From contig NZ_VFML01000001.1 in assembly GCF_006715045.1 (NCBI RefSeq), positions 1,642,501 to 1,706,500 on the forward strand: a stretch of DNA of 64,000 nt. The letters are read 5' to 3'. Both the position numbers and the translations under genes were made by a program. Positions 35,654-64,000 of the stretch are shown here, one piece after another (within the stretch, counting starts at the first letter, position 1; each line of letters begins with the position of its first letter). This stretch comes from Amycolatopsis cihanbeyliensis (GTDB taxonomy: Bacteria > Actinomycetota > Actinomycetes > Mycobacteriales > Pseudonocardiaceae). The notes beneath the pieces were generated by a model that was given only the letters and a program-made list of their open reading frames with translations, was not told the origin of the DNA and searched no databases.

Positions 35654-37444
35654 GTGGACGAGATGTTGGAGTTTCGCCTGCTCGGCCCATTGGAGGTGCT
35701 CGCACGGGCGGAACCGGTTCCGATCGGCGGGCTGCGGCAGCGCGTGGTGCTGACGACGCTGCTGCTGAATGCCGGCCGGGTGGTGTCGGTGGACACGCTG
35801 GCCGAGACGGTATGGGGCGCGCGACCCCCTTCTACCAGCCGGACCCAGGTGGCCATCTGCGTGTCGGCGCTCCGGAAGGCGTTCCGGGCGCACGGGGTCC
35901 GGCGGGAGGTGATCGAGACCTCCGCGCCGGGGTACGTGCTGCACCCGGCGGGGCACCGGGTGGACACCCTGATGTTCGAGGAACTGGTGGCCGAGGCGCG
36001 GGCGGAGGCGAGGGAGAACAGGGCCGCGGAGGCGGTGCGCTGCTTCGACTCGGCCCTGGCCCTGCGGCGCGGCCCGGTGCTGTCCAACGTCACCGGGCTG
36101 GCCCTGGAGGAAGCGGCCGAGTTGCTGGAGGAGAGCCTGCTGACCGCGTACGAGGAGCAGGTCGAGCTGCGGTTGGACCTTGGCGAGCACCGCTCGCTGG
36201 TCGGCGGGTTGGCCGCGGCGGTCGAGAAGTACCCGCTGCGGGACCGGCTGCACGGGTCGCTGATGACGGCGCAGTACCGATCCGGCCGGCGGGTCGCGGC
36301 TCTGGAGACGTTCGCGCGCTGCCGCCGCCGTTGGGTCGAGGACCTGGGTCTCGAGCCGAGCGCGCAGCTACGGCGGCTGCACGAGCGCATCCTGCGCGAC
36401 GAGGAGGGCCCGCCCGCGGACCGGCCCCCTGCCCAGCTTCCCGCCGCGACGCAGGCGTTCACCGGGCGAGCCGAGGCGCTGACCGCATTGGACCGGCTGG
36501 CCGACCGGGGCGGGACGGGCGGTACACCACCGCTCGGGCTGATTGTCGGCGGCGTCGGAGTGGGCAAGACCGCGTTGGCGGTGTGGTGGGGGCAGCGCGG
36601 GACCGACCGGTTCCCGGACGGCCAGCTGTTCGTGGATCTGCACGGGCACGATCCGCACCGCGCACCGGCGGATCCGAGTGCCGTACTGGCCCGCCTGCTG
36701 CGCTCGCTCGGGGTGCCCGCCGAGCAGGTGCCACGCCCCGCCGAGCGCCCCGAGCTGTTCCGCACGCTGCTGGCCCGCAAGCGGATGCTGCTGGTGCTGG
36801 ACGACGCCAGGGACGCCACGCAGGTGTGGCCGCTGCTGCCGAACACCGCGAGCTGCCAGGTGCTGGTGACCTCGCGGGACCCGCTGCGCGAGCTGGTGGC
36901 CCGCTGCGGCACCGTGCCGCTGCGGCTGGACAGCCTGCGGCAGGACGAGGCGGTGGCGCTGGTGCGCGGGATCGTCGGCGAGGCCAGGGTGACACGGGAC
37001 CCGGAGGCGGTGGCGCGGCTGGTCGAGCTGTGCGGGCGACTACCGGGGGCGCTGCTGGCGGCGGCCGCGCATCTGGCCAGCAAGCCACACTGGGACGTTG
37101 CCAGGATGGTGCGCGAGCTGTGCCGCCCGCGGCATCGGCTGGCCGGGCTGGGCGGCGCGGGACAGCGGCTGCGGGACGGGCTGGCCGCCAGCGCACGCCG
37201 GCTGGACCCGGCCGCGGCCCACCTGTACCGGGCGCTTGGCGAGTTGCCCACCCCGGAGCTGACCTGCTGGACGGCGGAGACCCTGCTGAGCTGCCCGGCT
37301 CCGGATGCCGACGACGTACTCGAGCGGCTGGTCGACGCGCATCTGCTGGAGCCCGCCGGCTCCGACGCCGACGGCGGGACCCGGTACCGGCTGCCCAGCC
37401 TGCCCCATGCCTTCGCGGCGGAACTGGCCACCGCCGGTCCATGA
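35654..37444 (+). CDS. SARP-family pathway activator with NB-ARC domain (NocR-like)
   Basis: This 596-aa protein has an OmpR-like winged helix at about residues 1-95 (LEFRLLGPLEVLARAEPVPI, LRQRVVLTTLLLNAGRVVSV), a bacterial transcriptional activation domain at about 100-245 (VDTLMFEELVAEAR, RDRLHGSLMTAQYRSGRRVA) and an NB-ARC/STAND ATPase with P-loop VGGVGVGKTALAVWWG and MLLVLDDARDA. No TPR domain follows, so it is shorter than AfsR. NocR of nocardicin biosynthesis is a SARP. This gene is followed after 31 bp by the P450 and probably activates the NRPS promoter through the direct repeats near 49.57 kb. A GTG start at 35654 and ATG at 35663 are both possible. Confidence 0.88.
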   Translation: MDEMLEFRLLGPLEVLARAEPVPIGGLRQRVVLTTLLLNAGRVVSVDTLAETVWGARPPSTSRTQVAICVSALRKAFRAHGVRREVIETSAPGYVLHPAGHRVDTLMFEELVAEARAEARENRAAEAVRCFDSALALRRGPVLSNVTGLALEEAAELLEESLLTAYEEQVELRLDLGEHRSLVGGLAAAVEKYPLRDRLHGSLMTAQYRSGRRVAALETFARCRRRWVEDLGLEPSAQLRRLHERILRDEEGPPADRPPAQLPAATQAFTGRAEALTALDRLADRGGTGGTPPLGLIVGGVGVGKTALAVWWGQRGTDRFPDGQLFVDLHGHDPHRAPADPSAVLARLLRSLGVPAEQVPRPAERPELFRTLLARKRMLLVLDDARDATQVWPLLPNTASCQVLVTSRDPLRELVARCGTVPLRLDSLRQDEAVALVRGIVGEARVTRDPEAVARLVELCGRLPGALLAAAAHLASKPHWDVARMVRELCRPRHRLAGLGGAGQRLRDGLAASARRLDPAAAHLYRALGELPTPELTCWTAETLLSCPAPDADDVLERLVDAHLLEPAGSDADGGTRYRLPSLPHAFAAELATAGP

Positions 37445-37475
37445 CCCACACCGGCTCGACGGGAGAGGAAACCCA

Positions 37476-38672
37476 GTGACCACAGTCGAAGCGTGCCCCT
37501 ACCCCTTCAGCGACCCGGTCCGCCTTGACCTGCACCCCCGGTACGCCGAGCTGCGCGCCGAGCGACCGGCGATGCGGGTGCGGCTGCCCTACGGCGCGGA
37601 ATGCTGGCTGGTGACCCGCTACGAGGACGTCAAGACCGTGCTCGCCGACCACCGGTTCAGCCGGGCACGTACGGCCGGCAGGGAGGACACCCCACGGGTG
37701 ACGCCCGAGGCGGCGCCGGCGGGCTCGATCCTGAGCATGGACCCGCCCGAGCACAGCCGTCTCCGCAGGCTGATCGCGCGGGCGTTCACCTCGCGAAGGG
37801 TCCGCGAGTTCCGGCCCCGCACCCAGGAGATCGTGGACGGCCTGCTGGACGAGATCGAGCACACCGGTCCCCCCGCCGACCTGGTGGAGAGCCTCGCGTT
37901 GCCGTTGCCGGTATCGGTGATCTCGCAGATGCTCGGCGTGCCGCCGGGCGAGCACCACCGGTTCCGGGACTTCTCAGCGATGGTGCTGTCCACCACGACG
38001 CACACCCGCGAGGAGGTGGTGGCCGCGCGGGCGGCGCTGGAGGAGTACCTGAGCGAGTTGGCCGAGCAACGTCGCCGGCAGCCCGGCGAGGACCTGATCA
38101 GCGCGCTGGTCGCCGCGCACGACGACGACAAGCTGACCGACAAGGAGCTGACGCAGACCGGGATCACGCTGCTGGTCGGCGGGCACGAGTCGACCGCGAG
38201 CCAGTTCGCCAGCTCGGTCTACCTGCTGCTGTCCCGGCCCGAGCAGTGGGCGCTGCTGCGGGAACGCCCCGAGCTGGTGCCCTCGGCGGTGGAGGAACTG
38301 CTGCGCTACATCCCGCTCGGCTCCGGCGGCGCGTTCGCCCGGATCGCCACCGAGGACATCGAGCTGGGCGGCGTGCTGGTGCGGGCGGGCGAAGCCGTGG
38401 TGGCCAGCACCAACTCGGCCAACCGGGACGAGGAGGTGTTCGCCGATCCGGCGGAACTGGACCTCACCCGCGAGGACAACCCGCACCTGGCCTTCGGCAG
38501 CGGGGTACACGTCTGCCTCGGCGCGCAGCTCGCGCGGGGTGAGTTGCAGGTCGCGCTGGGCTCGCTGCTCGCCCGCTTCCCCGAGTTGCGCCTGACCCGG
38601 CCCGCCGAGGAGGTGCCGTGGAAGGAGGGCACCCTGCTGCGCTCGCCCCGGAGCCTTCCGGTCACCTGGTGA
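37476..38672 (+). CDS. cytochrome P450 (NocL-like candidate)
   Basis: This 398-aa soluble P450 starts at a GTG behind GGGAGAGGA. I-helix motif LLVGGHESTASQ, K-helix EELLR and the haem-binding loop AFGSGVHVCLGAQLAR with the axial Cys are intact, as is the C-helix MDPPEHSRLRRLIARAF. It follows the SARP gene closely and is probably cotranscribed. In nocardicin A biosynthesis NocL is the P450 that makes the oxime from the amine of nocardicin C. That role is inferred from context. Its stop abuts the stop of the convergent esterase gene. Confidence 0.85.
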   Translation: MTTVEACPYPFSDPVRLDLHPRYAELRAERPAMRVRLPYGAECWLVTRYEDVKTVLADHRFSRARTAGREDTPRVTPEAAPAGSILSMDPPEHSRLRRLIARAFTSRRVREFRPRTQEIVDGLLDEIEHTGPPADLVESLALPLPVSVISQMLGVPPGEHHRFRDFSAMVLSTTTHTREEVVAARAALEEYLSELAEQRRRQPGEDLISALVAAHDDDKLTDKELTQTGITLLVGGHESTASQFASSVYLLLSRPEQWALLRERPELVPSAVEELLRYIPLGSGGAFARIATEDIELGGVLVRAGEAVVASTNSANRDEEVFADPAELDLTREDNPHLAFGSGVHVCLGAQLARGELQVALGSLLARFPELRLTRPAEEVPWKEGTLLRSPRSLPVTW

Positions 38673-39698
38673 TCAGCGTCGGCTGTTCACCAGGAAATCG
38701 AGCACCGTATCGGCGGCGGAAAGCTGCCGGCTGGTCACCCCGACCGTGCGGGTCGAGGTGCGGAACTCGCCGCCCGGCCAGGTATGGCCGCCGCCGTGCA
38801 CGATGACGGACACCACCCGCAGTCCGGTGCCCGGATTGGTCCAGGTGTCCCTGCCGACCGAGGTGCCGTCGGCGGGGGTGTCGGCAGGCAGATCCTCGTG
38901 GCGGTGCCGGGTGGCACCGCCGGCCCGGCGGAACGCCGCCACGGTCTCGGCGGTGGACCTCGTCGGCGTGGGTGGTTCCTTGCCGATCTCCGAGGGCCTG
39001 GCCGGCGCGCCGGCCAGGCCCTCGATGGGGCGGAGCGGGTCGGCGTCCCCGTAGATGGACAGCACCGGGATGGGCCCGGCCGGCCGCACCGGCGCCGGCG
39101 GGCCCGCCAGCTGGCCCGCCACGGACGCGGCGGCGGCGAACCAGTCGGGGCGCTCGGCGGCCAGCCGCAACGCCATCGCCCCGCCCTCGGAGAAACCGGC
39201 CACGTACACGTGCTCCGGATCGATGTCCGCGGTGTGGCTCAGCTCCTCGATCACCGCGTGGGCGAAGTCCACGTCGGCGGCGGGGTTCGGGCGCAGCGCG
39301 GTGGGCCGCGGCGAGGCCGACCAGCCCGCGGACAGCCCTTCCAGGTAGGCCACGGCCACGCCCACGGCATCGGCGGCCTCGTTCAGCCCGCTGTACCGCT
39401 CCATCCGCTCGGCGGAACCGCCCTTGCCGTGCAGGACCAGCAGCAGCGGCCGGCCCGCGCCCTCAGCGGGGCGGGCCGAGCTGTGCAGCCGGTAGGAGCG
39501 GGATCGGCCCGCGGCGGTGATCTCCCGGACCTCGGTGTCGGCGTCGGTGACCGGGCGGCGCTTGGCCGGGGTGCCGCCGCCGTCGGCGAGGGAGGAGGAC
39601 ACGGCGGGCCGGGGTGGGGGCTGCTCCGGCGACGAGCACCCGCACAGCAACACCGGTACCAAGGAGACGAGCGCGCACCACCGCGAGATCCTGTGCAT
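38673..39698 (-). CDS. lipoprotein polyhydroxybutyrate-depolymerase/LpqC-like esterase
   Basis: This 341-aa protein has lipobox VPVLLCGCSSPEQ (Cys 19-21). The esterase core has RPLLLVLHGKGGSAERMERY, the nucleophile elbow VYVAGFSEGGAMALRL with Ser, the acid LSIYGDADPLRP and His in VIVHGGGHTWPGG. This is the PHB depolymerase/LpqC family (feruloyl-esterase-like). Its end is three bases from the PLP-enzyme gene, so esterase, PLP enzyme and MbtH gene read as one leftward run. Within a beta-lactam cluster it could act on the antibiotic outside the membrane, but this is not demonstrated. Confidence 0.8.
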   Translation of the reverse strand: MHRISRWCALVSLVPVLLCGCSSPEQPPPRPAVSSSLADGGGTPAKRRPVTDADTEVREITAAGRSRSYRLHSSARPAEGAGRPLLLVLHGKGGSAERMERYSGLNEAADAVGVAVAYLEGLSAGWSASPRPTALRPNPAADVDFAHAVIEELSHTADIDPEHVYVAGFSEGGAMALRLAAERPDWFAAAASVAGQLAGPPAPVRPAGPIPVLSIYGDADPLRPIEGLAGAPARPSEIGKEPPTPTRSTAETVAAFRRAGGATRHRHEDLPADTPADGTSVGRDTWTNPGTGLRVVSVIVHGGGHTWPGGEFRTSTRTVGVTSRQLSAADTVLDFLVNSRR

Positions 39699-39700: not shown

Positions 39701-40720
39701 TCAGTGAAGATAACGGGCGAGCTCCGGGCGGACCCGTCCCGACTCGCCCGATTCCACCTCCCGGGTGTTACCGGTGTGCCAGAACAGGTAGGTGCCGCCG
39801 CGCTCGTTCTCCTTGCCGTCGGCGTCGGCGAGGAAGCGGGCGAATGCCTTGGCCCCGTAGCACTCGTCCACCTCCACGTCCGCCGACTCGCGCAGCAGGC
39901 GAGCCGCCCGTGTCCCCTGCGGGCCGGGCACGCCGTAGGGCGCGCCTGCGCACCCGTCGACGTGCCGGACCTCCCCCGCTCGCACCGCCTGATCGCCACC
40001 ACCGAGCGAGGCCGCCACCGCGCGGGCGCGCTCGAGTAGGCCGGGTCCGGTGACCGAGGGGTCCCCCACCACGTCGACGGCGATCACCTGGAACGGCAGG
40101 CCGGCGAGTGCCAGCCCGGCGGCGATGCCGGCGGCGGTGAGGGTGGACGCGGCAGGCAGGTACACCCGTAGCGGGGTGGGCAGGGCCAGCGCGCGGGCCT
40201 GCTCGGCGAGTTCCCTGCCGGCCAGCGCGTGCGCGTGCCCGGCCACCGGGTCCGCGCCGCCGAACGGGATGACGTGTGGCCGTTCGCCCCGCCCGCGCAG
40301 CTCCGCCAGCGCGGTGCGGTGACGTTCCCGGGACGGGTGCACCGAGACCCCGGTGGGCACCGGCTCCAGGTACGCGCCCGCGGCCAGTGCCAGCCGCAGG
40401 TTGCGCGCGACCAGCCGCCCCGGCTCCTGGGGCAACACCAACGCGGTGACCCGCAACCCCAGCCGGGCCGCGTGTACGGCGGTGGCCGCGACGTGGTTGG
40501 AACCGACGGTGCCCGCGGTGAGGATCGCGGTGGCCTCCGCGGCCGTGGCCGCCCCCAGGGTGAACTCCAGCGCCCTGGTCTTGCAGCCGCCGAAGGCCGG
40601 CGAGTTCTCGTCATCACGCTTGAGGTACACCGGCCGGTGCGACAGGCCGGCGAGCGGCTGGAGCCAGGTGGGCGTGGTGGCCAGCGGGACGCGCGGCCGG
40701 TGACCGGCGGGTTCGGTCAT
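39701..40720 (-). CDS. ACC deaminase/D-cysteine desulfhydrase-like PLP enzyme (NocJ-like epimerase candidate)
   Basis: This is a 339-aa fold-type II PLP enzyme. The cofactor Lys is in SPAFGGCKTRALEF, where ACC deaminases have GGNKxR, and a phosphate-binding loop TAGTVGSNHVAATA follows. NocJ of nocardicin biosynthesis is an ACC-deaminase homologue that epimerises the homoseryl side chain of isonocardicin, and this is the best guess here. The start ATG overlaps the MbtH stop by four bases. A pathway-independent deaminase is the alternative. Nothing in the sequence alone decides between them. Confidence 0.8.
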   Translation of the reverse strand: MTEPAGHRPRVPLATTPTWLQPLAGLSHRPVYLKRDDENSPAFGGCKTRALEFTLGAATAAEATAILTAGTVGSNHVAATAVHAARLGLRVTALVLPQEPGRLVARNLRLALAAGAYLEPVPTGVSVHPSRERHRTALAELRGRGERPHVIPFGGADPVAGHAHALAGRELAEQARALALPTPLRVYLPAASTLTAAGIAAGLALAGLPFQVIAVDVVGDPSVTGPGLLERARAVAASLGGGDQAVRAGEVRHVDGCAGAPYGVPGPQGTRAARLLRESADVEVDECYGAKAFARFLADADGKENERGGTYLFWHTGNTREVESGESGRVRPELARYLH

Positions 40721-40903
40721 GCCCGCTCCTCCGCGGCCCCGCGCGCGTCCGCGATCGTGTCGACGGGGCACCCGGCACGACCCGGCGCATGGCCACCAGG
40801 ACACGCGCCCCGCCGCCCCGACAGCGGGGCCTCCGGCCGAGGGCGCGCTCCGTGGTCACCGTGACGGCCGCGGGTTGACCCAAGGGGTGTCATGCCCGCT
40901 CCT
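40716..40903. repeat. 15-bp direct repeats flanking an insert at the mbtH/PLP-enzyme junction
   Basis: GTCATGCCCGCTCCT occurs at 40716-40730 and exactly again at 40889-40903 (period 173 bp). On the coding strand both copies read AGGAGCGGGCATGAC, a ribosome site plus ATG. The 158 bp between them encode the atypical C-terminal tail of the MbtH protein. This looks like a duplication or insertion that copied the translation start of the PLP enzyme. Confidence 0.8.
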
Positions 40904-41109
40904 GTGCCGCCGCATGCAGCGTCTCTCGCGGGCGGAGCGGGCATGTCCGTCCAGTTCTCCTCGATCCAGCTCAGGCAGCGCTGCTTGGGCCCGCGCCGCC
41001 CCACCGTCCGCCGGCCTTCCGGGACCGATGAGGCGGCAGGCCAGATCGAATACTGCTCCTCGTCGTTGACAACGACCTCGTATTCGGTGTCCTCGTTTTC
41101 ACCCGTCAC
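40717..41109 (-). CDS. MbtH-like protein with C-terminal extension (NocI-like)
   Basis: The first about 65 residues are an MbtH domain: VVVNDEEQYSIWPAASSVPE, then GPKQRCLSWIEENWTDMPAP. MbtH proteins bind A-domains and are needed for their solubility or activity. NocI is required by nocardicin A-domains. The frame continues for about 65 low-complexity Arg/Gly/Ala-rich residues to a stop overlapping the next gene, whereas MbtH proteins usually end just after NWTDM. The usual second Trp (PxGWR) is Arg here (PEGRRTV). GTG 41109 is preferred to GTG 41127 because it starts close to the domain. The extension coincides with a 15-bp direct repeat. Confidence 0.85.
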   Translation of the reverse strand: MTGENEDTEYEVVVNDEEQYSIWPAASSVPEGRRTVGRRGPKQRCLSWIEENWTDMPAPPARDAACGGTGAGMTPLGSTRGRHGDHGARPRPEAPLSGRRGACPGGHAPGRAGCPVDTIADARGAAEERA

Positions 41110-41212: not shown

Positions 41213-42460
41213 ATGGTGATCACCCGGGGCGCGGAGCGACTCGGGTTCCCCCGGATGCGCGGGCTGCACCGGCTGGCGATCGGGGCCGCGGTGGACAGCC
41301 TCGGCAGCGGGATCTTCGTTCCGTTCACCATTCCGTACTTCCTGATCGTCACCGACCTCGAACTGGTCAGCATCGGCACCGCACTCTCGGTGGCCGCGCT
41401 GGCCGGTGTACCCGCGGGGATGATGGCCGGCCCGCTGGTGGACCGGTTCGGGGCCACCACCATCGTGGTCGGGTCGAACCTGTTGCACAGCGTGGGCTTC
41501 CTCGGATACCTGTGGGTGGAGACCCCCTGGCAGCTCGCGCTGGTGGCCGCGCTGATCTACTGGGCCGACGGAGCCTGGCTACCGGCGCAGGGCTCCCTCG
41601 TGGTCGAGTTGGTGGGACTGGACCAGCAGCCACGCTGGTTCGCCCTGATCCGCTCCACCCGCAACGCCGCACTCGGGCTCGGCGGGATCATCGCCGCCTC
41701 GGTCGTCGGGTTCGGGGACGCCGGCTACCAGGCGCTGGCGATGGGCAACGCGCTCAGTTACCTGCTGGTGGCCGTACTCATCGGCACCTGGCCGAAAGCA
41801 CGTACCCGCGCCGGCAGGCGCGCCGCGGTGGCGCGACCGCGTGCGGTGGGCGGCTACCGCCAGGTGTTGCGGGACCGGCCGTTCACCCTGGTGGTGCTGG
41901 CCAACGGATGCTTCGTGCTCGCCATCTTCGCGATCATCCTGCTGATACCCGCGTACGTCGGCCTGACCCTGCCCGAACTCGCCTGGCTGCCAGGAGCCCT
42001 GTACACCGTCAACACAGTGCTCGTGGTGCTGGCGCAGCCGCCCGTGGTGCGCTGGACGGAGCGGCGGGCCGAAACCATGGTGCTCCGGCTGGCCGCGCTG
42101 GTGTGGATAGCCTCCTTCGGTGTGCTGGCCGTATCGGCGTTGCTCGCCCCACCGCTGGCCGTGTTCGTGGTGTTCTTCGGGGTGGTGGTGTTCACAGCCG
42201 CGGAACTGCTGTTCGCTCCCACCAGTGCGGCTTTCGTCGCCCGGCTGGCCCCGCCGACCCTGCGCGGGCGCTATCTCGGCACGCACCAGCTTTCCTGGGG
42301 AACGGCGACGGTCGTGGCCCCGCTGCTGTTCACCAGCCTGCTGTCACTCGGCCCGGTGTGGCCATGGCTCGCGCTGATCGCCATCTGCATGACCGGATGG
42401 CTACTGGTCGGCATGGCCCGCCGCCGGATGGAGGCCCGGCCCCGGCACGAGCGAACCTGA
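41213..42460 (+). CDS. MFS transporter (NocH-like exporter candidate)
   Basis: This protein of about 415 aa has twelve hydrophobic segments. The MFS loop 2-3 signature appears as GPLVDRFGATTIVVGSNLL. Early segments are DSLGSGIFVPFTIPYFLIV and VAALAGVPAGMMA; the C-terminal half includes VVFFGVVVFTAAELLFAPTS. It is divergent from the MbtH gene within the cluster. NocH in nocardicin clusters is an MFS protein proposed to export the antibiotic. Its last 190 bp are overlapped antisense by the menC reading frame. Confidence 0.85.
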   Translation: MVITRGAERLGFPRMRGLHRLAIGAAVDSLGSGIFVPFTIPYFLIVTDLELVSIGTALSVAALAGVPAGMMAGPLVDRFGATTIVVGSNLLHSVGFLGYLWVETPWQLALVAALIYWADGAWLPAQGSLVVELVGLDQQPRWFALIRSTRNAALGLGGIIAASVVGFGDAGYQALAMGNALSYLLVAVLIGTWPKARTRAGRRAAVARPRAVGGYRQVLRDRPFTLVVLANGCFVLAIFAIILLIPAYVGLTLPELAWLPGALYTVNTVLVVLAQPPVVRWTERRAETMVLRLAALVWIASFGVLAVSALLAPPLAVFVVFFGVVVFTAAELLFAPTSAAFVARLAPPTLRGRYLGTHQLSWGTATVVAPLLFTSLLSLGPVWPWLALIAICMTGWLLVGMARRRMEARPRHERT

Positions 42461-43497: not shown

Positions 43498-43858
43498 CAG
43501 GTGGCAGTCTCCTCGTCGGCGCGGGTGCTCGTGCGGGTGAGATCTGTGATGCGGTCGTCTAGCTCACGCACGCCCAGTGAGCCGTTGCGCAGCGGCCGGA
43601 CTTGGCGTTGCAGCGTGCGAAGCCGGTCGAGTGCGCGAGTAGAGCTGACCTGACCGGCCGTGCGCACGGCTTTCCGCCCCACCGAGGCGGCTTGTTCCAG
43701 ATCGCCGCTAGCCAGGTGTGCGGTGGCAAGGTCGGTCTGCACGAAGCACCGCCTGCGCACTCGCCACGGCTCGTAACCGTCCAACGCCTGCTTGATCAGG
43801 CGAGTACCCTGCTCGAGCTCGCCCGCGTCGCGCAGGCACCGACCAAGATCGGCGGCGA
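43497..43858 (-). pseudogene. C-terminal fragment of an XRE/TPR-type regulator
   Basis: The frame encodes helical TPR-like sequence: ELEQGTRLIKQALDGYEPWR, CFVQTDLATAHLASGDLEQA, VRTAGQVSSTRALDRLRTLQ and a charged tail. This is the end of actinobacterial HTH-TPR regulators. The HTH and first repeats are gone, because upstream of about 43860 the DNA encodes a radical SAM fragment on the other strand. The stop overlaps the menC start region. Confidence 0.6.
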
Positions 43859-43860
43859 GT

Positions 43861-44489: not shown

Positions 44490-44526
44490 CCTGCGGTATC
44501 GATCGCTATTCGGAGGGAGTGCCACC

Positions 44527-45056: not shown

Positions 45057-45156
45057 CCGGCACTCTCCCTCTCGCCGCGGGACATCCGTGCCGTGCCGCG
45101 TATCCGGCGCCTTCCTGGCCCGACTGCCCGGCTCCGCCGATGGTGCGACGCGCCGG

Positions 45157-45753: not shown

Positions 45754-45777
45754 ATCCCCAGCTTAACTTGCGCCCAC

Positions 45778-45818: not shown

Positions 45819-45840
45819 CTTGTCGGGGATGGGAGCGGCA

Positions 45841-55600: not shown

Positions 55601-58600
55601 AGGCAACCGCGCGGACCCGGCCGCTCACCCCCACCCTGGGTGCGTTCGACCTCGAGGTGACCGCGCGGTCCACCCCGGACGGATGGGACGTCGAGGTGCG
55701 CGGCGCCACCGAGACGTTCGAGCCCGCCGGCGTCGAACACCTCGCCTCGGCGCTGGCGCGGCTGCTCACCGGCGTGGCCGAACGGCCGGGTGCCCCGCTG
55801 GGCACGATCGACCTGCTGGACGCGCGGGAACGGCACCGGCTGCTGGTCGAACCGAACCGGCGGACGCTGCCCGAGCGGCCCACCGAGGTGCTGGGCCTGG
55901 TGGCCGAGTGGGTGGCCCGCACCCCGGAGGCGACCGCGGTCAGCGCCTCCGACGGGGGACTCAGCTACCGGGAGCTGGACGCCCTTTCCGACGGCGTCGC
56001 CGCCTGGCTGCGCGGCCAGGACCTCCCCGTGGAGGGACCGGTGGCCACCCGGATGGGGCGGTGCCGGGAACTGCCGGCCGTGGTGCTGGGCATCTGGAAG
56101 GCCGGCGGGGTGTACGTGCCGCTGGACCCCGCGCATCCGGACGAGCGGCACCGCCGGATCCTCGCCGACTGCGGGCCACACGCGGTGCTCACCGACCGGC
56201 CCGACCTGGACACCGGCCCGATCCCCACCCTGGCGATCGCCGATCTCCGCCCGGCGGCACCCGGACCGGCCCACCGGCCGGAGCCCGGCCAGCTCGCGTA
56301 CGTGGGCTACACCTCCGGGTCGACCGGAGCGCCGAAGGGCGTGCAGTGCACCCAACGGGGGCTGGCCAACCAGCTGCTGTGGTCGCGGCAGGCGTACCCG
56401 CTCCAGCCGGGAGAAGCGTCGGCGCAGGTGGCCGCCGTCGGCTTCGACATCTCGCTGTGGGAGATGTTCCACCCGCTGGCCAGCGGGGGCCGGTTGGTGG
56501 TGCTGGACCAGGACCGGCACGGGGACGTGGCCGCGATCGCGGACCTGGTGGCCGCGGAGCGGGTGGCCGTGCTGCACCTGGTGCCCACCCTGCTGGAGCA
56601 CTACCTGGAACTGCGGCCCGCCGACTCCCTGCGGGACGTGGTGTGCGGCGGGGAAAGCCCCTCCCCCGGCCTGCCTGCCCGGTTCGCCGCGCGGATGTCC
56701 GCCACCCTGCACCACACCTACGGACCCACCGAGGCGTCGATCATCGCCACGCACTGGCGCTCCCCCGCCGATCCCGGGCCCGGCGGGGTGCCGCTGGGCC
56801 GGCCGCTGCCGAACGCGCGGGTGTACCTGCTGGACCCGCGAGGCATGCCGGTGCCGGTCGGCGTGCTCGGCGAGCTGGTCCTCGGCGGCGAGGTGCTGGC
56901 AAGGGGCTACCTCGGGCGGCCGGCGGCGACCGCGGAACGGTTCCTGCCGGACCCGTTCGCCGGCGTCCCGGGCGCGCGGATGTACCGCACCGGCGACCTC
57001 GCCCGGTACCGCGCGGACGGCAGCCTGGAGTTCGTGGGCCGGGCCGACCGGCAGGTGAAGATCGCCGGGGTGCGGATCGAGCCCCGCGAGGTGGAGGCCG
57101 CCCTCGGTGCCGACCCGCGGGTGGCCGCCTGCGCGGTCCTGCCCAGGGAGGACCCGGCGGGGGTGGTGAGCCTGGTGGGCTACCTGGTGCCTGCCGACCC
57201 GGCCACCGACCTCGACCGGCTCAGCACCGAACTGCACGCGGCACTGCGGGAACGGCTTCCTCGCGCGATGGTGCCGGCACGGCTGGTGCCGCTGGCCGAA
57301 CTGCCGATCGGGGTGAACGGCAAGCTGGATGTGGCCGCGCTGCCGGATCCCGTGCCGCCCACGGTGCCGGAGGAGGATGTCCGGCCCGGCACCGAACCGG
57401 AGCGCACCCTGGCCGCCATCTGGTCCCAGGTGGTGCCGGCCACCGGCGGGCGCCGGATCGGCCCGCGGGACAACTTCTTCGACCTCGGCGGTGACTCGGT
57501 GAGCGCGATCCGGGTGGTGGCAAGGGCGCGGGCGGCCGGCCTGCGCGTCGAGCTCGGGCAGGTGCTGCGCTCCCCGACGCTGGCCGACCTCGCGGCCTCG
57601 GCGCTGCCGGCCGAGGAGCCCGCGGCGACACCGCTCCCCGCCGCGGACGGCCGGGTGTGGCTCACCCCGGCGCAGCGCCGGTTCCTGGCCACGGCGGGAC
57701 GCCGGCCAGGCCACCTCAACCAGGCCGTGCTGACCGAGCCCATCGAGCGGGTCGAGCCGGAGCCGCTGCGGGCGGCGCTGCGCGCGGTGGCCGCGCACCA
57801 CGACGCCTTCCGGCTACGGGCGGTGTGGGACGGCCGGGGTTGGCGGGAGCACGCCGTCCTCACCCCGCCGGCGGACTCCCTGGCCACCGTGGTGGTGGCG
57901 GACGTCCCGCTGACGGAGGATTCGCTCGCGGCACTGGCCCGGCCCGTGCACGAGGCCATGGACATCGAGCACGGGCCCGTACTGGCCGCCCTGCTCGGCG
58001 AGCGGCCGGACGGCGGGCAGGCGGTGCTGCTGGTCGCCCACCACCTCGCGGTGGACACCGCGTCCTGGGAGGTCGTTCTGTCCGATCTGGACACCGCGTA
58101 CCGGCGGGTGTCGCGGGGCGAACCGGTGAACCTGCCGAAGCCGGCCACCCCACTCGCGGAGTTCGCCCGCGCCCTGCCCACGCTCGCCGCACGCCTGGAC
58201 ACCCCCGGGCAACGCGAGCACTGGCGACGGCAACTCGCGGACCTGCCCCGGCTTCCGGCCACCGCAGGGGGCGACGACGGCGGCCCCGAACCGGTGACGC
58301 TCGAACTGGGCGAACCGGCCACCGGGGCGCTGCTCGCGGCGACCTCCCGGCACCGGCTGCGGGTGGACGAGCTCCTGCTGGCCGCGCTGGCCCGCGCCAT
58401 CGCCCGGTGGACAGGGGACCGGCACGCGGCGGTGCTGCGCGAGACACACGGCCGTTCGGGCCTGCCCGGCCCGGTCGACCTGACCGGCACGGTCGGCTGG
58501 CTCACCGGTATCCACCCGCTGCGTGTCGACTTGTCCACGGTGGAGGATCCGCTGGGTGCCCTGCGGGCCACCCGGAGGGCGCTGGCCGCGGTACCGGACG

Positions 58601-60237
58601 GCGGAGTGGGCTACGGCCTGCTACGGGCCGACGACGGGCCCGAACCGGAGGTGGTGGTGAACTACCTCGGTTCCACCGCGGGCGGCCCCGGGCCGGGCCT
58701 GTTCGCGCGCGCCGAGCGGCAGGTGGTCGGCGCGGACACCGCCGCGGAGCACGCCACCCCGCGGGGGATCGAAGTGCTCGCCGGCATCGACGGCCGCGGG
58801 CTGTGGGTGGAGTGGTTGCGCGATCCCGACCGCTTCGCCCGCGGCACGATGCTGCGGCTGGCCGGCGAACTGCGCACCGAACTGGCCGAGCTGGTGTCCT
58901 CGTTGGACGGACCGTTCGGTGTCGCCTGCGTGGCCGCCGACTTCCCCGCCGTGGACCTGCCCGAGCCACAACTGCGCGCGCTGCTGACCGCCCGCCCCGA
59001 TACCCGCGCGGTGCTGCCGCTGTCCCCGGCGCAGCAGGGCATGCTGGCCTGGCACCTCGCCCACCCCGGGTCGGCCTCTTACCACACGCAGATCCTGTTC
59101 GCGCTGGAAGGCGACGTGGACGAGGCGGCGCTGCGCTGGGCATGGCGGCAGGTGGTGGCGCACACCGACGTGTTCCGGTCCGCCTTCCCCAGTGCCGGGT
59201 TGGACGAGCCGGCGCAGGTGATCGGCGCCGGACCGGAACCGGACTGGCGGCGGCACACCGGCTCCGCGGCGGACCTGGACGCGGTGCTGGCCGCCGACCG
59301 CGCCGAGCCGTTCGACCTGACAAGGCCGGGAGCGCAACGCTGGCACTGGGTGGACGGCGGCCCGGAGGGCCGGTGGCTGCTGTGGAGCCACCACCACATC
59401 CTGCTCGACGGCTGGAGCCTGCCGCTGGTGCTCGCCGATGTCGCGGACGCCCACACCGCGCGGGTCGCCGGGCGTCCCTGGACGCCGCCGCGCAGGCCCG
59501 GCTACGACGCCTACCTGTCCTGGCTGTCCACTCAGGACGAGCAGAGCGGGGAGCGGTTCTGGCGCGCGGCGCTGGCCGGCGCCACGCCGACCCGGCTCGG
59601 CCGCCCGACCCACGGCGGTTCGGCCGCGCTGGTCACCGCCGAGCTCTCGGCACCGGCGACGGCCGCGCTGGCCAGGCTGGCCGAGCGCAGCAGGGCCACG
59701 CTGCACTCGGTGGTACTGGCAGGCTGGTCACTGCTGCTCAGCCAGCGCTGCGCGAACCGGGACCTGGTGTTCGGCGTGGTGATGTCCCTGCGGCCGGACG
59801 AGATCCCCGGTGCCGAGCACCTGATCGGGCTGTGCCTGAACACGGTGCCGCTGCGGGTAAGGGTGGACGAGGACGGCGAGTTGCCCGCGCTGTTCGGTCA
59901 GGTGCAGCAGGGCCTGGTGGAGGCGTACCAGCACGCGGCCCACCCGCCGTCCCGCATCCGCGAGTGGGCCGGGGCGGCGGACGCGCTGTTCGACAACATC
60001 GTGGTGTTCGAGAACTATCCTGGCGACCGCACCGGCCAGGACCTCGGCGAGCACGGCCGGTTGCGGGTGGTTCGCACGGTGGAGAACACCGAGTTCGCCG
60101 TCTCCCTGACCGTACTGCCCGGCGACCGGCTGACCTTCGAGCTGACCTACTCCGACCACGCACTGACCTCAGCCGAGGCGACCGGGCTGGTCCGCCGCCT
60201 CGCCCGGCTGCTGGAACGCATCGCCGAGAGCCCGTGA
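49603..60237 (+). CDS. NocA-like trimodular NRPS (A-T-C-A-T-C-A-T-E-C)
   Basis: This 3544-aa synthetase starts directly with an A-domain. A1 has YTSGSTGRPKG (~162), specificity residues D208 onward read DIWHVGAITK, and T1 has FFALGGHSL (Ser 554). C2 has HHLVCDRW (744-751, Arg in place of Gly). A2 code is DVENVGAIGK, with Glu at the Trp239 position fitting a basic substrate such as Arg, and T2 has Ser 1589. C3 has HHIAADG (1776-1782). A3 code is DIWHVGTIIK, and T3 has FFDLGGDS (Ser 2632). The epimerase has HHLAVDT (2813) and VVNYLG (~3017). The final C4 has HHHILLDGW (3263). A1 and A3 share the D-I-x-H-x-G of Hpg codes. This order is that expected of NocA, giving L-Hpg-L-Arg-D-Hpg and the condensation domain for module 4. 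Codes were aligned by eye to GrsA. Confidence 0.93.
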   Translation: MADSRQDGERGLRIEHRPGEVWRLIAAVLAEGNERVAAMRGDRSLSCSTVAGRSAALAERLRAAGVGPERPVAVLVEDGLDLLVACLAVFRAGGVYLPMDPEWPAGRLAAVLADARPVVAIVSGGTPPIEVPTLPVEAGNSGGYGHGGWPEPEPEQAAYLTYTSGSTGRPKGVLVSHGALANRMLWWQRTYPLRAGDVLLATASPSFDISVWELLAGLLAGARLVLAEHRVHGIVPYLQELMSARRVTVAHLVPSVLDELLAGMADGERLDLRLAVCGGESVPPSLRDRLLDRSDARLVHAYGPTETTITVVHDECRRGDPADAVPLGRPMHNTAMAIVDTEGRRVPLGESGELVIGGAALARGYLGLPAETAARFVPDSLGLDPAGGGRLYRTGDRVRRLPDGRILFLGRLDDQFKVRGHRVDPAEIESLLQQHPAVNRAAVRPAGAGNGTEGHRVVAYIQGDAEPERLREHLADRVAQAVVPTRWVFLERFPLMPNGKVDRAALPEAPDRVEGPVSEAGTELERELCALWADLLGVGSVGAADDFFALGGHSLIATRTVAAVWHRHRVRLSLADVLRARTVAELATRVEKLAAGEREPEPVPVSTVADELPLSRAQARILFEEEFLGGPGLFSVPVLTRWRGPVDETALRAALDGLVRRHPTLRSALAEDTEPARLLVGAATEVPFSREDLRALDPAARATRVAEAEEEMLAEPFDLGRPPLLRARLARLDEEEHVFLLVLHHLVCDRWSMRVLVEDLHELYAAARAGRAPRLDPPAHPLATVARPGGEAETARILDYWTSRLDGVPLDLDLTVGRRLRADHGHRAGRVLRLLPPERAAALAELCSARGVTPFMVLLAAFQVLLHRFSDANDVVVGAPVADRDLPGAEAVVSMLVHTVPLRADLRGNPRFAEVLDQCREAVLAAHQHQAVPIERLAGALGRRRGSGHHPLMRHLMVWEDSPGPPVELPGVTAEPMRPSARTTAFDLTLIARAWADEIDLELEFNQDALDASAAETLADAFTTSFADFLAEPNLRIGAARLTERTPAPGLVGPVEPPAPGLVGLVRAAAARRPEAAAVLDGSTVTGYAGLLRHADAVAARIRAAGGGTGDVVGVCLPRSATLVAALLGILEAGCAFLPLSPDDPDERVGRQLAVSGARWVVTTDTDRFAHLGVPVLPAEPDDPTAGTAATPPEPATDDPAYVIFTSGSTGEPKGVVVEHGALADHVRWAVSEYRLSPADRALQFCSVTFDVLLEEVFPTLAAGAAVVLRSEEAATSARALLAQCAASGVTVLNLPTGYWERLTEALIEDELAWPRSARLVVVGGQQADRATVDRWHRRVTGVRLLNAYGPTEVTIGATVAALLPGEEPPPIGVPIPNTRAYLLDRYLTPVPEGTVAELYLAGSGLARGYASRPGLTAERFLPDPFATGRTMYRTGDLAYCRRGVLYFVGRADRQVKVRGYRVELDEVERALAAHPLVDEAAVLTRDDHLEAHVATRPGVDTRELRAHLADRLPAFMVPSVVEVTSALPKTATGKVDRAGLAPVPARLAADFQPPRDDRERAACALWAEVLDVSTVGIRDSFFALGGHSLLAMDLVRRMRKRGYPGLRMPDLFEHPTIEALAPWAADAPAAEPAPVPGATPPPWAPLSWTQLGIWAQAATAAAGTFHLPVVLRLSGPLAEPALRAALEALATRHDLLRCVLEEGADGPNWRVACGTPVPLRVLDLPAAGLDARVRELIAEPFDLAAAPPVRWTLLRLSQDGDENDASDHALVIVLHHIAADGWSASGLVRELAELYAAEVERRPARLDPAPSFLALAAADRAAPPDEAGLAFWAETLRGAPERMDLPAERLPGAPRDPGRHSARLPLPRHAATALGELALRERSTVFITLLAGVQAWLARCCRQPDVVVGTPVADRDGAATAGVVGPLVNVLPIRTEVDPAGSFAEHLARTRAAVLAAFEHRSVPTQRIVRHLGLSGRGLSRVVFDLDDAATPETVPFGQATARTRPLTPTLGAFDLEVTARSTPDGWDVEVRGATETFEPAGVEHLASALARLLTGVAERPGAPLGTIDLLDARERHRLLVEPNRRTLPERPTEVLGLVAEWVARTPEATAVSASDGGLSYRELDALSDGVAAWLRGQDLPVEGPVATRMGRCRELPAVVLGIWKAGGVYVPLDPAHPDERHRRILADCGPHAVLTDRPDLDTGPIPTLAIADLRPAAPGPAHRPEPGQLAYVGYTSGSTGAPKGVQCTQRGLANQLLWSRQAYPLQPGEASAQVAAVGFDISLWEMFHPLASGGRLVVLDQDRHGDVAAIADLVAAERVAVLHLVPTLLEHYLELRPADSLRDVVCGGESPSPGLPARFAARMSATLHHTYGPTEASIIATHWRSPADPGPGGVPLGRPLPNARVYLLDPRGMPVPVGVLGELVLGGEVLARGYLGRPAATAERFLPDPFAGVPGARMYRTGDLARYRADGSLEFVGRADRQVKIAGVRIEPREVEAALGADPRVAACAVLPREDPAGVVSLVGYLVPADPATDLDRLSTELHAALRERLPRAMVPARLVPLAELPIGVNGKLDVAALPDPVPPTVPEEDVRPGTEPERTLAAIWSQVVPATGGRRIGPRDNFFDLGGDSVSAIRVVARARAAGLRVELGQVLRSPTLADLAASALPAEEPAATPLPAADGRVWLTPAQRRFLATAGRRPGHLNQAVLTEPIERVEPEPLRAALRAVAAHHDAFRLRAVWDGRGWREHAVLTPPADSLATVVVADVPLTEDSLAALARPVHEAMDIEHGPVLAALLGERPDGGQAVLLVAHHLAVDTASWEVVLSDLDTAYRRVSRGEPVNLPKPATPLAEFARALPTLAARLDTPGQREHWRRQLADLPRLPATAGGDDGGPEPVTLELGEPATGALLAATSRHRLRVDELLLAALARAIARWTGDRHAAVLRETHGRSGLPGPVDLTGTVGWLTGIHPLRVDLSTVEDPLGALRATRRALAAVPDGGVGYGLLRADDGPEPEVVVNYLGSTAGGPGPGLFARAERQVVGADTAAEHATPRGIEVLAGIDGRGLWVEWLRDPDRFARGTMLRLAGELRTELAELVSSLDGPFGVACVAADFPAVDLPEPQLRALLTARPDTRAVLPLSPAQQGMLAWHLAHPGSASYHTQILFALEGDVDEAALRWAWRQVVAHTDVFRSAFPSAGLDEPAQVIGAGPEPDWRRHTGSAADLDAVLAADRAEPFDLTRPGAQRWHWVDGGPEGRWLLWSHHHILLDGWSLPLVLADVADAHTARVAGRPWTPPRRPGYDAYLSWLSTQDEQSGERFWRAALAGATPTRLGRPTHGGSAALVTAELSAPATAALARLAERSRATLHSVVLAGWSLLLSQRCANRDLVFGVVMSLRPDEIPGAEHLIGLCLNTVPLRVRVDEDGELPALFGQVQQGLVEAYQHAAHPPSRIREWAGAADALFDNIVVFENYPGDRTGQDLGEHGRLRVVRTVENTEFAVSLTVLPGDRLTFELTYSDHALTSAEATGLVRRLARLLERIAESP

Positions 60238-60269: not shown

Positions 60270-63200
60270 GTGACCCTCCGCGTGCGCGACCTGTTCGCCG
60301 ATGAAGCCGACGAAGCCACCGCGCAACTGGCCGCGTGGAACGACACCGCCCGCGACTTCCCCACCGACGTGGGCATCCACCAGCTCATCCAGCGGCAGGC
60401 CGCCGAGCATGGCGCGCGGCCGGCCGTCACCTGCGCCGGGTCCACCCTGAGCTACGCGGAGCTGGACGCGGCGGCGGCCGACCTGGCGGCGCGGCTGGCC
60501 GCGCTGGGCGTGCGGCCGGGCGACGTGGTGGCCATCGCGCTGGCTCCTTCCGCCGAGCGGATCACCGCCGTACTCGGCGTGCTGTACGCGGGCGCCGCCT
60601 ACCTGCCGCTGGACCTGGAGCAACCGGCCCAGCGGTTGGAGTTCCTGCTCACCGACGCCAGCACGGCCGCGCTGGTCACCGACACGGCCGCGCGGGCGGA
60701 GAAACCGCTCGCACATACCGGGTCCACCCTGCTGCTCGACCGGTTGCCGCACGCGGAACGCCCGCCGGCCGCGTTCCCCGGCGCCGACCTGCCCGCCTAC
60801 GTCATCTACACCTCCGGCTCCACCGGCCGCCCCAAGGGCGTGCAGGTCGGCCACCGCAGCCTCGTCAACCGTCTACTGTGGATGCGCGATCGCTACCGGG
60901 TCGGTCCGGATGACGTGATCCTGCACAAGACCTCCTTCGGCTTCGATGTCTCCGTCTGGGAGCAGTTGCTGCCGCTGCTCACCGGGGCCCGCCTGGTGAT
61001 CACCCCGCAGCGGGCGCGCAGGGACGCCGCCGCGATGGTGCGGCTGATCCGCGCGGAATCGGTCACCATGCTGCACTTCGTGCCCTCCCTGCTGCCCGCG
61101 TTCCTGGACGTGGCCGAGGTCGAGCGGGCCGGTTCGCTGCGGGTGGCCGTCTCCAGCGGTGAGGCGCTGCCCAAGCCGGTGGCACTGGAGTTCCTCCGCA
61201 GGCTGCCGCACTGCGCCCTGCACAACCTCTACGGGCCGACCGAGGCCACGATCGACGTCACCCACTGGCCGGTGGACGCCGCGGACGAGCGGCCCTTCGT
61301 GCCGATCGGCACCCCGATCGACAACACCCGGATGTACGTGCTCGACGACGAGCTGCGACCGCTGCCGGTGGGCGCGGAGGGTGAGCTGTGCGTCGGCGGG
61401 CAGGCCGTGGCCGTGGGGTACCTGGGGCGGCCGGGGCTGACCGCGGAGAAGTTCGTGCCCGACCCGTTCGGCGCGCCCGGCGAGCGGCTCTACCGCACCG
61501 GCGACCGGGCCCGGTTCGGCCCGGACGGCGTCCTCGAGTACCTGGGTCGCAGGGACGGCCAGGTCAAGCTGCGCGGCTACCGGATCGAGCTGGGTGAGAT
61601 CGAGACGGCCCTGCTGGAGTCAGAGCTGGTCCGGCAGGCCGCGGTGGTGCTACGCGGCCCCGCCGGGGCGCAGCGGCTGGTGGGTTTCGTCTCCGGCCGC
61701 CCCGGGGCCGCGGCCGAGCGGGAGCGGGCGAGCACCGAGGTGCTGGCCCGGCTGTCCACGACGCTGCCCGCGTACCAGGTGCCCAGCGAGCTGGTGTGGC
61801 TGGACGCACTGCCGTTGAGCGCCTCCGGCAAGGTGGACCGGGCCGCGCTACCCGAGGTGACCGTCGCCGCGGAGTCCTCGGCGGCGCCGGGCACGCCGAC
61901 CGAGCGGGCCCTCGCTGAGCTGTGGGCGGAGCTGCTCGGCGGCCAGGAGCCCGGGGTGGACGCCGACTTCTTCCGCTCCGGTGGCGACTCGGTGTCCAGC
62001 ATGCGGCTCGCCGCCAGGGCGCAGGGGCAGGACATCCGGCTCGAGGTGGCGCACATCTTCAACCACCGCACCATCCGTGGCATGGCCGCCGCCGCGGACG
62101 AGGCCACCGGCCGGCCCGCCACCGAGGAGCCCGCGGAGGAGACGCTGCTGGCCGGCATCGACCCCGAACGGCTGGACGCGGTACGCGCCCTGCCCGGGGT
62201 CGTCGACGTGTACCCGCTGGCCCCGATGCAGGCCGGGATGTTGTTCCGCGGGCTGTACTGGCCCGATTCCGACGCCTACTTCAACCAGAACGTGCTGGAA
62301 CTGGTGGGCGGGGCGGACGAGGACGCGCTACACGAGGCGTGGCGGCGGGTCGCCGACCGGTACGAGATCCTGCGCACCGGCTTCGTCTGGGAGGACCTGG
62401 CCGAGCCCCTGCAGTATGTGCGCTCCGACATCCGGCCACCGTGGACGGTGCTGGACTGGTCCGACCGCGATCCGGACAGCCATCCCGCCTTACTGGACCG
62501 GCTGCTCGCCGACGATCGGGAGGCGGGCCTGGGGCTGGACGCCTGCCCGCTGTACCGGCTCACGCTGGTCCGGCTCGGCGGCGACCGGCACTACCTGCTG
62601 TGGAGTCACCACCACATCCTGCTCGACGGCTGGTGCCTCTCGCTGATCTGGGGCGACATGTTCCGGATGTACGAAGACCTGGTGCGGGGCCACGAAACCC
62701 AGCTCACGCCGTGCCGGCCGTACCGGGACTACGTGCGTTGGATCCGCGCCAAGTCCGCCGAGGGCGACGCCTCCGAGCGGTTCTGGCGGGAGTACCTGCG
62801 GGACCTGTCCCCGGTCCCGTTCTCGGACGTTCCCGCCGACAGGGAAGGCCTGTTCCACACGATCGTCCACGAGTTCTCCGAGCCGCTGACCAGGCTGGTC
62901 AACGAGGCCGCCCGCGGTCACGGCGTCACAGCCAACGCGATCACCCAGGCCGCGTGGAGCATGCTGCTGGCCCTGCGCTCCGATGCCGAGGAGGTGGTGC
63001 ACGGCCTGACCATCGCCGGCCGCCCGCCCGAGTTGGCCGGCTCGGAGACCATGGTCGGCCTGTTCATCAACACGGTGCCGCTGCGCATCCGGCTCGACCC
63101 GGACCGCACGGTGACCGAGCTGCTGGAGGCCATCCACCACGACCTCGCCGCCACCGCCGCGCACGGCTACGTCCCCCTCGCCCAGATCAAGTCGTGGGGC

Positions 63201-64000
63201 AGCGGCGGGAAACTGTCCGGAGAACGGATCTTCGACAGCCTGGTCGCGTTCGAGAACTACCCCGAGGACAACCTGCCCGGCGAGGACGAGCTGAGTATCC
63301 AGGTCATCGACCTGCACGCGCAGGAAAAGACCGAGTACCCCATCGGGCTGATCGTGTTGCCGCTGGAGCGGCTGGCCTTCCATTTCAACTACGACACCAC
63401 GCATTTCACCCAGGACGAGGTCGCCCGGCTCATCGAGACTTTCCAGCTGCTCATGGAGCAGCTCTGCCACCGCCCCGACGCGCGACTGCGCGAGCTGGAC
63501 GTGCTGCCGGCGCGGGACCGGGCGCTGTTCGAACAGTGGAACGACACCACCGACGGCGAGGATCCGGAAGCACACAGCCTGCTCGAGCTGTTCACGCGGC
63601 GACTCGCCGGCACACCGCATGCCCCCGCCGTCGTGGAAGGAGGGGCCGCGACCAGCTACGCCGAACTGGACGCGCGGGCACGCGACCTGGCCGGGCACCT
63701 GGCCGACGCCGGGGTCCGCCCCGGTGACCTGGTGGGCGTCTGCCTGCCCCGCTCCCTGGCCTACGTCAGCGCGCTGCTGGCCGCCTACCTCCGCGGCGCG
63801 GTGCCCGTGCTGCTCGACCCCGACCACCCGCCCGCGCGGCGGCGGGTGATCGCGGAGGACGCCGGGGCGCGCGCGGTGGTGACCACAATGGACTCCGCCG
63901 AGTTCGCGGCCTGGCCGGTGGTGCACCCCGCCGGCACGGTGACCGGACCGGTGAACCCACCCCCCGGCGTCGCGGGATCGGTGGACCCGGCCCGGGACGC
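60270..64000 (+). CDS. NocB-like NRPS (A-T-C-A..., 3' end outside window)
   Basis: This frame is open from GTG 60270 (site AGAAGGA) to the right edge, 1243 codons. A4 has TSGSTGRPKG (~183) and FDVSVWE (D226); its code reads DVWHVSLIDK, almost identical to the serine code of EntF (DVWHLSLIDK). T4 has FFRSGGDSV (Ser 574). C5 begins YPLAPMQAGMLF (~648) and holds HHHILLDGW with three His at 780-782. NocB C5, which forms the beta-lactam from a seryl thioester, needs an extra His before the normal HHxxxDG motif, near residue 790. A5 starts near 1110 and is cut by the edge. T5 and the thioesterase should follow. The gene starts 32 bp after the first NRPS, so both are in one operon. Confidence 0.93.
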   Translation, partial: MTLRVRDLFADEADEATAQLAAWNDTARDFPTDVGIHQLIQRQAAEHGARPAVTCAGSTLSYAELDAAAADLAARLAALGVRPGDVVAIALAPSAERITAVLGVLYAGAAYLPLDLEQPAQRLEFLLTDASTAALVTDTAARAEKPLAHTGSTLLLDRLPHAERPPAAFPGADLPAYVIYTSGSTGRPKGVQVGHRSLVNRLLWMRDRYRVGPDDVILHKTSFGFDVSVWEQLLPLLTGARLVITPQRARRDAAAMVRLIRAESVTMLHFVPSLLPAFLDVAEVERAGSLRVAVSSGEALPKPVALEFLRRLPHCALHNLYGPTEATIDVTHWPVDAADERPFVPIGTPIDNTRMYVLDDELRPLPVGAEGELCVGGQAVAVGYLGRPGLTAEKFVPDPFGAPGERLYRTGDRARFGPDGVLEYLGRRDGQVKLRGYRIELGEIETALLESELVRQAAVVLRGPAGAQRLVGFVSGRPGAAAERERASTEVLARLSTTLPAYQVPSELVWLDALPLSASGKVDRAALPEVTVAAESSAAPGTPTERALAELWAELLGGQEPGVDADFFRSGGDSVSSMRLAARAQGQDIRLEVAHIFNHRTIRGMAAAADEATGRPATEEPAEETLLAGIDPERLDAVRALPGVVDVYPLAPMQAGMLFRGLYWPDSDAYFNQNVLELVGGADEDALHEAWRRVADRYEILRTGFVWEDLAEPLQYVRSDIRPPWTVLDWSDRDPDSHPALLDRLLADDREAGLGLDACPLYRLTLVRLGGDRHYLLWSHHHILLDGWCLSLIWGDMFRMYEDLVRGHETQLTPCRPYRDYVRWIRAKSAEGDASERFWREYLRDLSPVPFSDVPADREGLFHTIVHEFSEPLTRLVNEAARGHGVTANAITQAAWSMLLALRSDAEEVVHGLTIAGRPPELAGSETMVGLFINTVPLRIRLDPDRTVTELLEAIHHDLAATAAHGYVPLAQIKSWGSGGKLSGERIFDSLVAFENYPEDNLPGEDELSIQVIDLHAQEKTEYPIGLIVLPLERLAFHFNYDTTHFTQDEVARLIETFQLLMEQLCHRPDARLRELDVLPARDRALFEQWNDTTDGEDPEAHSLLELFTRRLAGTPHAPAVVEGGAATSYAELDARARDLAGHLADAGVRPGDLVGVCLPRSLAYVSALLAAYLRGAVPVLLDPDHPPARRRVIAEDAGARAVVTTMDSAEFAAWPVVHPAGTVTGPVNPPPGVAGSVDPARD

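What the first reader, a model, noticed from the sequence alone, without database searches (positions are those of the whole stretch)
35654..64000. Nocardicin-type monocyclic beta-lactam gene cluster
Seen: SARP, P450, ACC-deaminase-like PLP enzyme, MbtH, MFS, HpgT, HmaS and two NRPSs arranged A-T-C-A-T-C-A-T-E-C and A-T-C-A. Established: nocardicin A uses NocR (SARP), NocL (P450), NocJ (ACC-deaminase-like epimerase), NocI (MbtH), NocH (MFS), NocG/NocF for Hpg, and NocA/NocB. The A4 code is Ser, the third module epimerises, A1 and A3 share an Hpg-like code, and A2 has an acidic pocket. Inference: the cluster makes L-Hpg-L-Arg-D-Hpg-L-Ser-X with an embedded beta-lactam. Hydroxymandelate oxidase, Nat and the TE are not seen and should lie to the right, if present.
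Basis: partly seen in the sequence, partly recalled or inferred. Interest (0 to 1): 0.95.

Follow-up and report, generated by a model that had tools for sequence, protein, structure and literature searches.

The report
Nocardicin antibiotic gene cluster, one gap
This stretch of an Amycolatopsis-type genome carries a near-complete set of genes for a nocardicin-type beta-lactam antibiotic, a known kind of cluster; its oddities are that one gene for making the building block hydroxyphenylglycine is missing and that a vitamin K2 gene sits inside it.

Summary
Window 35654-64000 is the left and central part of a nocardicin-type cluster; the flanking genome shows the rest (NocB to 66014, Nat-like 66011-66922, numbering continued). 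The line is A-T-C-A-T-C-A-T-E-C + A-T-C-A-T-TE. Each of the five A-domain codes differs from those of six relatives, including the known producer Actinosynnema mirum, at 0-2 of 9 positions. The TE matches crystallised NocB (6ojc) with triad kept. Predicted: L-Hpg-L-Arg-D-Hpg-(beta-lactam from Ser)-D-Hpg, then nocardicin A-type tailoring. (2) menC plus about 3.5 kb of other DNA splits the cluster between the MFS gene and HpgT. Production is untested. New member of a known kind; modest interest.

The parts
35654..37444 (+). SARP-family regulator (NocR-like)
   Evidence: BTAD, Trans_reg_C, NB-ARC; 72-92% identical to genes at the same place in 6 relatives
37452..38672 (+). cytochrome P450 (NocL-like; oxime formation is recalled, not tested)
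   Evidence: PF00067; 82-96% identity to 6 relatives; start codon approximate
38673..39698 (-). alpha/beta hydrolase, esterase/PHB-depolymerase-like, lipoprotein-like N-terminus judged by eye (nocK position)
   Evidence: tblastn match in 5 of 6 relatives, none at that place in G063
39701..40720 (-). ACC-deaminase/D-cysteine-desulfhydrase-like PLP enzyme (NocJ)
   Evidence: PF00291; 21 homologues at 1e-20 or better; in the 6 relatives fetched it lies in a noc cluster
40717..41109 (-). MbtH-like protein (NocI); tail longer than in the A. aidingensis copy
   Evidence: PF03621
41207..42460 (+). MFS transporter (NocH-like)
   Evidence: PF07690; 72-90% to 6 relatives
42271..43497 (-). menC (o-succinylbenzoate synthase) inside the cluster; about 83 extra codons at its end, the last 190 bases overlapping the MFS gene antisense; not thought to be part of the pathway
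   Evidence: NF002782 436 bits against cut-off 288 over residues 8-325 of 408; second menC at C1:730137
43497..47037 (.). other inserted genes: TPR fragment, CYTH, TetR, FAD monooxygenase
   Evidence: no matching gene between MFS and HpgT in the 6 relatives
47084..48391 (-). HpgT-like aminotransferase (NocG)
   Evidence: PF00155; 76-89% to 6 relatives; start approximate
48414..49475 (-). HmaS, 4-hydroxymandelate synthase-like (NocF)
   Evidence: Glyoxalase domains and TIGR01263 4HPPD; 66-92% to 6 relatives; start approximate
49603..60237 (+). NocA-like NRPS, A1-T1-C2-A2-T2-C3-A3-T3-E3-C4 (3544 aa)
   Evidence: A codes DIWHVGAIT, DVENVGAIG, DIWHVGTII; C2 HHLVCDR, C3 HHIAADG, E HHLAVD, C4 HHHILLDG
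60270..64000 (+). NocB-like NRPS, A4-T4-C5-A5-T5-TE (1914 aa), continues to 66014 outside the window
   Evidence: A4 DVWHVSLID, A5 DIWHLGAVS, C5 HHHILLDG; TE close to 6ojc. A Nat-like SAM enzyme follows at 66011-66922 in continued numbering

Best explanation
A vertically inherited nocardicin A-type gene cluster. Shown by sequence: HmaS and HpgT for hydroxyphenylglycine, the five-module NocA/NocB line with MbtH partner, a Ser-type module 4, a C5 domain with HHHxxxDG, a NocTE-type TE, NocJ, P450, Nat-like enzyme, MFS exporter and SARP regulator. Inferred from the published nocardicin enzymes: NocA/NocB make L-Hpg-L-Arg-D-Hpg-L-Ser, C5 dehydrates Ser and closes the beta-lactam with L-Hpg, the TE epimerises and releases pro-nocardicin G, the Hpg-Arg head is cut off, and P450 and Nat (roles recalled) finish nocardicin A. 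Since Hmo is missing, the step from 4-hydroxymandelate to 4-hydroxyphenylglyoxylate is probably done by an enzyme encoded elsewhere, for example one of the two lactate/mandelate-oxidase-like flavoproteins.
For: TE match to 6ojc with Ser1779, Val1783, Asp1806, His1808, Leu1810, Pro1819, Arg1826, Leu1846, Gly1850 and His1901 kept (alignment, numbers counted by hand; residues named in PMC6711958). A codes differ from each relative at 0-2 of 9 positions per domain. Same gene order as G125, Hmo and the insert apart; its contig of 8,248,144 bp equals the A. mirum genome length in PMC3035213, which names that species a nocardicin producer. dS against A. aidingensis 0.26-0.39 for ten noc genes (MbtH left out), 0.29-0.33 for four flanking genes; omega 0.09-0.35 for the noc genes. 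Both spare flavoproteins keep Tyr128, Arg163, His252 and Arg255 of Hmo; one has lactate oxidase and then (S)-mandelate dehydrogenase as best PDB matches.
Against: No product has been measured. No Hmo in the cluster; genome-wide the two full-length homologues are about 41% identical, a third match is partial, so Hpg supply may be broken. Those two differ from Hmo at pocket residues Phe24 (Tyr), Ala79 (Gly) and Met160 (Gly or Leu), score as lactate dehydrogenase/oxidase or lactate monooxygenase relatives, and proteins at 39-43% identity to Hmo are in 10 of 10 genus members searched, so nothing ties them to nocardicin. HHHILLDG also occurs in C4 of all seven clusters, so it is not proof of beta-lactam formation. 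TE residues I count as Val1823, Ala1854 and Arg1903 are Ile, Asp and Gln here. Nocardia uniformis proteins other than the TE were not available.
Confidence: 0.93

Rival explanations
1. A decayed or silent nocardicin cluster: loss of Hmo stopped Hpg supply and the rest is on the way out.
For: No Hmo in the cluster region by tblastn or blastn beyond chance-level matches and only about 41% homologues genome-wide here and in A. aidingensis; menC and other DNA inserted.
Against: Both Amycolatopsis clusters lack Hmo, so the loss probably predates their split (inference), yet HmaS (omega 0.107), HpgT (0.236), NocB (0.237) and P450 (0.092) have low omega and intact frames. Simple estimates, two species only.
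Confidence: 0.2
2. A nocardicin-like line making a different peptide or an unfinished product.
For: Val for Ile in the A4 and A5 codes against all six relatives; longer MbtH tail; changed TE residues at 1823, 1854, 1903 (counted by hand).
Against: All other code positions equal those of A. mirum; P450 and Nat-like genes present.
Confidence: 0.05
3. A glycopeptide, feglymycin or other Hpg-rich assembly line.
For: HmaS, HpgT and Hpg-type codes are shared by such clusters (recalled).
Against: Five modules, Ser-type code, NocTE-type TE, NocJ, Nat-like gene; nearest proteins are those of noc clusters.
Confidence: 0.01

Closest known systems
   Same: Right flank collinear and left flank gene shared; 80-96% protein identity over ten noc genes, same dS as neighbours; Hmo also missing; menC also between MFS and HpgT
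   Different: 24 kb more DNA left of SARP; the two embedded menC copies differ at dS 0.63 and the other inserted DNA differs; MbtH tails differ
   Same: Collinear gene order and matching A codes, Val/Ile in A4 and A5 apart
   Different: Has Hmo next to SARP and no menC insert
Nocardicin A cluster of Nocardia uniformis (Gunsior 2004, seen only as a citation in PMC5676828; gene roles recalled)
   Same: TE domain aligned to 6ojc; module and domain features as described in PMC6711958 and PMC10880069
   Different: Other genes could not be compared; sequence not held

Membership tests
Nocardicin biosynthetic cluster | Five modules over two NRPSs, single E domain in module 3, terminal TE | tested here: met
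Nocardicin biosynthetic cluster | Specificity Hpg-Arg-Hpg-Ser-Hpg | tested here: met
   By code only: 0-2 of 9 positions differ from each of six relatives incl. A. mirum; pentapeptide from a PMC6097109 passage. Substrate use not assayed
Nocardicin biosynthetic cluster | C5 domain with HHHxxxDG | tested here: met
   HHHILLDG in NocB C5; same motif also in C4, so weakly diagnostic
Nocardicin biosynthetic cluster | NocTE-type thioesterase with its triad and pocket | tested here: met
   alignment to 6ojc; three residues named in the paper differ (1823, 1854, 1903); activity not assayed
Nocardicin biosynthetic cluster | NocJ, MbtH, P450, Nat in the cluster | tested here: met
Nocardicin biosynthetic cluster | Complete Hpg set (HmaS, Hmo, HpgT) in the cluster | tested here: not met
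   Hmo absent. A supply gene, in my view not part of what defines the assembly line
Nocardicin biosynthetic cluster | Makes a nocardicin | not testable with these tools
   needs culture and LC-MS
Glycopeptide assembly line | Seven-module line with several Oxy P450s (recalled) | tested here: not met
   five modules, one P450 among the cluster proteins scanned

The most novel reading that the evidence does not exclude
In the Amycolatopsis branch the nocardicin pathway works without its dedicated hydroxymandelate oxidase: a general flavin oxidase (or another enzyme) encoded far away makes 4-hydroxyphenylglyoxylate, a route to Hpg with no clustered Hmo.
Probability: 0.45. Interest if true: 0.4.

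Novelty: new member of a known kind. Interest (0 to 1): 0.27.

Why it matters
Nocardicins are natural monocyclic beta-lactams with an unusual ring-closing C domain and an epimerising TE. The cluster adds a well-resolved member and a natural experiment: two related species that kept the assembly line but lost the Hpg oxidase. If they still make nocardicin, an unassigned enzyme of Hpg supply can be found, which is of use for making Hpg-containing antibiotics. PMC6711958 calls the protease that removes the Hpg-Arg head unknown; a NocK-like hydrolase was matched in 6 of the 7 clusters compared here, so it is a candidate but seems not universal.

Tried and rejected
Hmo remnant near SARP: none; tblastn at E 100 gives only matches with E 16 or more in this region, blastn at E 1 only short matches, none between 34396 and 35654. 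One search printed rows for A. aidingensis only, best E 1.3. Hmo from another Hpg cluster in this genome: nothing above about 41% full length. Of ten genus members that I picked from the 35 listed, three have a homologue at 58-60% and four more at 45-48%. menC as a pathway enzyme: it scores as ordinary o-succinylbenzoate synthase, so I treat it as an insertion; its origin is unresolved (see full report). NocK as the pro-nocardicin protease: possible, untested; in G063 the gap at that place has open frames of up to 274 codons that I did not identify. Papers with nocardicin and hydroxymandelate oxidase: 0; nocardicin and Amycolatopsis: 18, seen as a listing. PMC11762266 was searched for Noc gene names without result. 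Three Planctomycetota loci at 31-33% identity to NocJ were not used. Rfam at gathering cut-off gave nothing. No structure prediction was run.

A slip: the NocB query was translated out of frame (start 60268), so its NocB rows are void and dropped; NocB figures come.

Full report
The window lies at G000:C1:1642501-1706500 of a 7.4 Mb genome in two contigs. G013 is labelled same genus; its contig of 7,657,695 bases has the length listed for the Amycolatopsis aidingensis NocB, so the host is inferred to be an Amycolatopsis. It may be A. cihanbeyliensis, the closest species named in PMC8685341 (passages), but this was not tested.

Gene content. Pfam and NCBIfam scans confirm SARP, P450, alpha/beta hydrolase, PLP enzyme, MbtH, MFS, aminotransferase, HPPD-like HmaS and the NRPSs. 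The next 40 kb complete NocB at 66014 (window numbering continued), followed by a methyltransferase-fold enzyme at 66011-66922 with 74-87% identical counterparts directly after NocB in all six relatives; I call it Nat by position and recalled role. After it come LacI, glucanase, amylase and sugar-uptake genes, so the cluster ends there.

Assembly line. NocA is A-T-C-A-T-C-A-T-E-C, NocB A-T-C-A-T-TE (Pfam counts E as a Condensation match; the E motif HHLAVD is read). The nine-position A codes, taken by alignment, are DIWHVGAIT, DVENVGAIG, DIWHVGTII, DVWHVSLID and DIWHLGAVS; each differs from those of the six relatives at 0-2 positions (for example Ile to Thr at the last place of A3 in G122 and G123). 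PMC6097109 (passages) gives the pentapeptide as L-pHPG-L-Arg-D-pHPG-L-Ser-L-pHPG. PMC10880069 (passages) describes C5 with HHHxxxDG as the dehydrating, ring-forming domain; C5 here has HHHILLDG, but so does C4 in all seven clusters. C2 has HHLVCDR or HHxVIDR in all seven. The TE aligns with PDB 6ojc; the triad and most pocket residues named in PMC6711958 (parts 1-3 of 7 read) are kept; those I count as 1823, 1854 and 1903 differ.

The missing oxidase. In G060, G063, G122, G123 and G125 a relative of the G060 FMN-dependent oxidase lies just upstream of SARP (Pfam PF01070 tested for the G060 and G125 copies); the G060 copy's best PDB match is 4-hydroxymandelate oxidase. Neither this cluster nor that of A. 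aidingensis has it (0 of 2 against 5 of 5), with no remnant beyond chance-level matches. In this genome the best two homologues are about 41% identical; a third match is partial. Proteins at 39-43% are in 10 of 10 genus members searched, A. aidingensis included; orthology was not tested. The two here resemble lactate/mandelate oxidases; they keep the four residues that anchor the substrate in Hmo but differ at Phe24, Ala79 and Met160 (PMC6677016 passages; the A. mirum copy also has Gly at 79). Nei-Gojobori estimates against A. aidingensis give dS 0.26-0.39 for ten noc genes and 0.29-0.33 for four downstream genes, which fits vertical inheritance since the split; HmaS omega is 0.107, HpgT 0.236, NocA 0.318, NocK 0.351. 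This argues that Hpg is still made. It is inference: the method ignores the codon bias of a GC-rich genome, and two species are few.

The insert. In the five other-genus clusters MFS and HpgT are neighbours. Here menC, with about 83 extra codons whose last 190 bases overlap the MFS gene, a TPR fragment, CYTH, TetR and an FAD monooxygenase stand between. Among the loci compared, menC and the adjacent fragment are closest in protein sequence to the A. caeruleus menC locus (85% and 78%). A. aidingensis also has menC between MFS and HpgT, with other DNA, and no second copy was found. The two embedded copies differ at dS 0.63, about twice the noc genes, against simple vertical descent; on the other hand they are the closest pair by dS of the six menC genes compared, A. 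caeruleus being at 0.76. So the origin is unresolved. At the place of this genome's second menC, A. aidingensis lacks the gene. I see no link to the antibiotic.

Verdict. A well-supported nocardicin cluster with one notable gap. A predicted cluster of this kind in the sister species is in print (PMC8685341). I found no paper on the missing Hmo (open-licence library only).

Noticed in passing
42271-43497 and G000:C1:730137-731102: Two menC genes in this genome, one inside the noc cluster; in A. aidingensis only the one inside its noc cluster was found and the other place lacks the gene. Origin unresolved.
   Followed up: partly
upstream of 35654: Hmo present next to SARP in 5 of 5 other-genus noc clusters, absent in both Amycolatopsis ones.
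   Followed up: yes
38673-39698: NocK-position hydrolase has a lipoprotein-like start by eye and no tblastn match at that place in Actinoalloteichus caeruleus (G063).
   Followed up: partly
L011, window numbering continued about 90198-101859: Three very long + strand open frames (916, 1264 and 1781 aa) about 23 kb right of the Nat-like gene, perhaps another large cluster; not identified.
   Followed up: no
[not shown]
   Followed up: no
40717-41109: MbtH-like protein has a longer, glycine/alanine/arginine-rich tail than the A. aidingensis copy.
   Followed up: no
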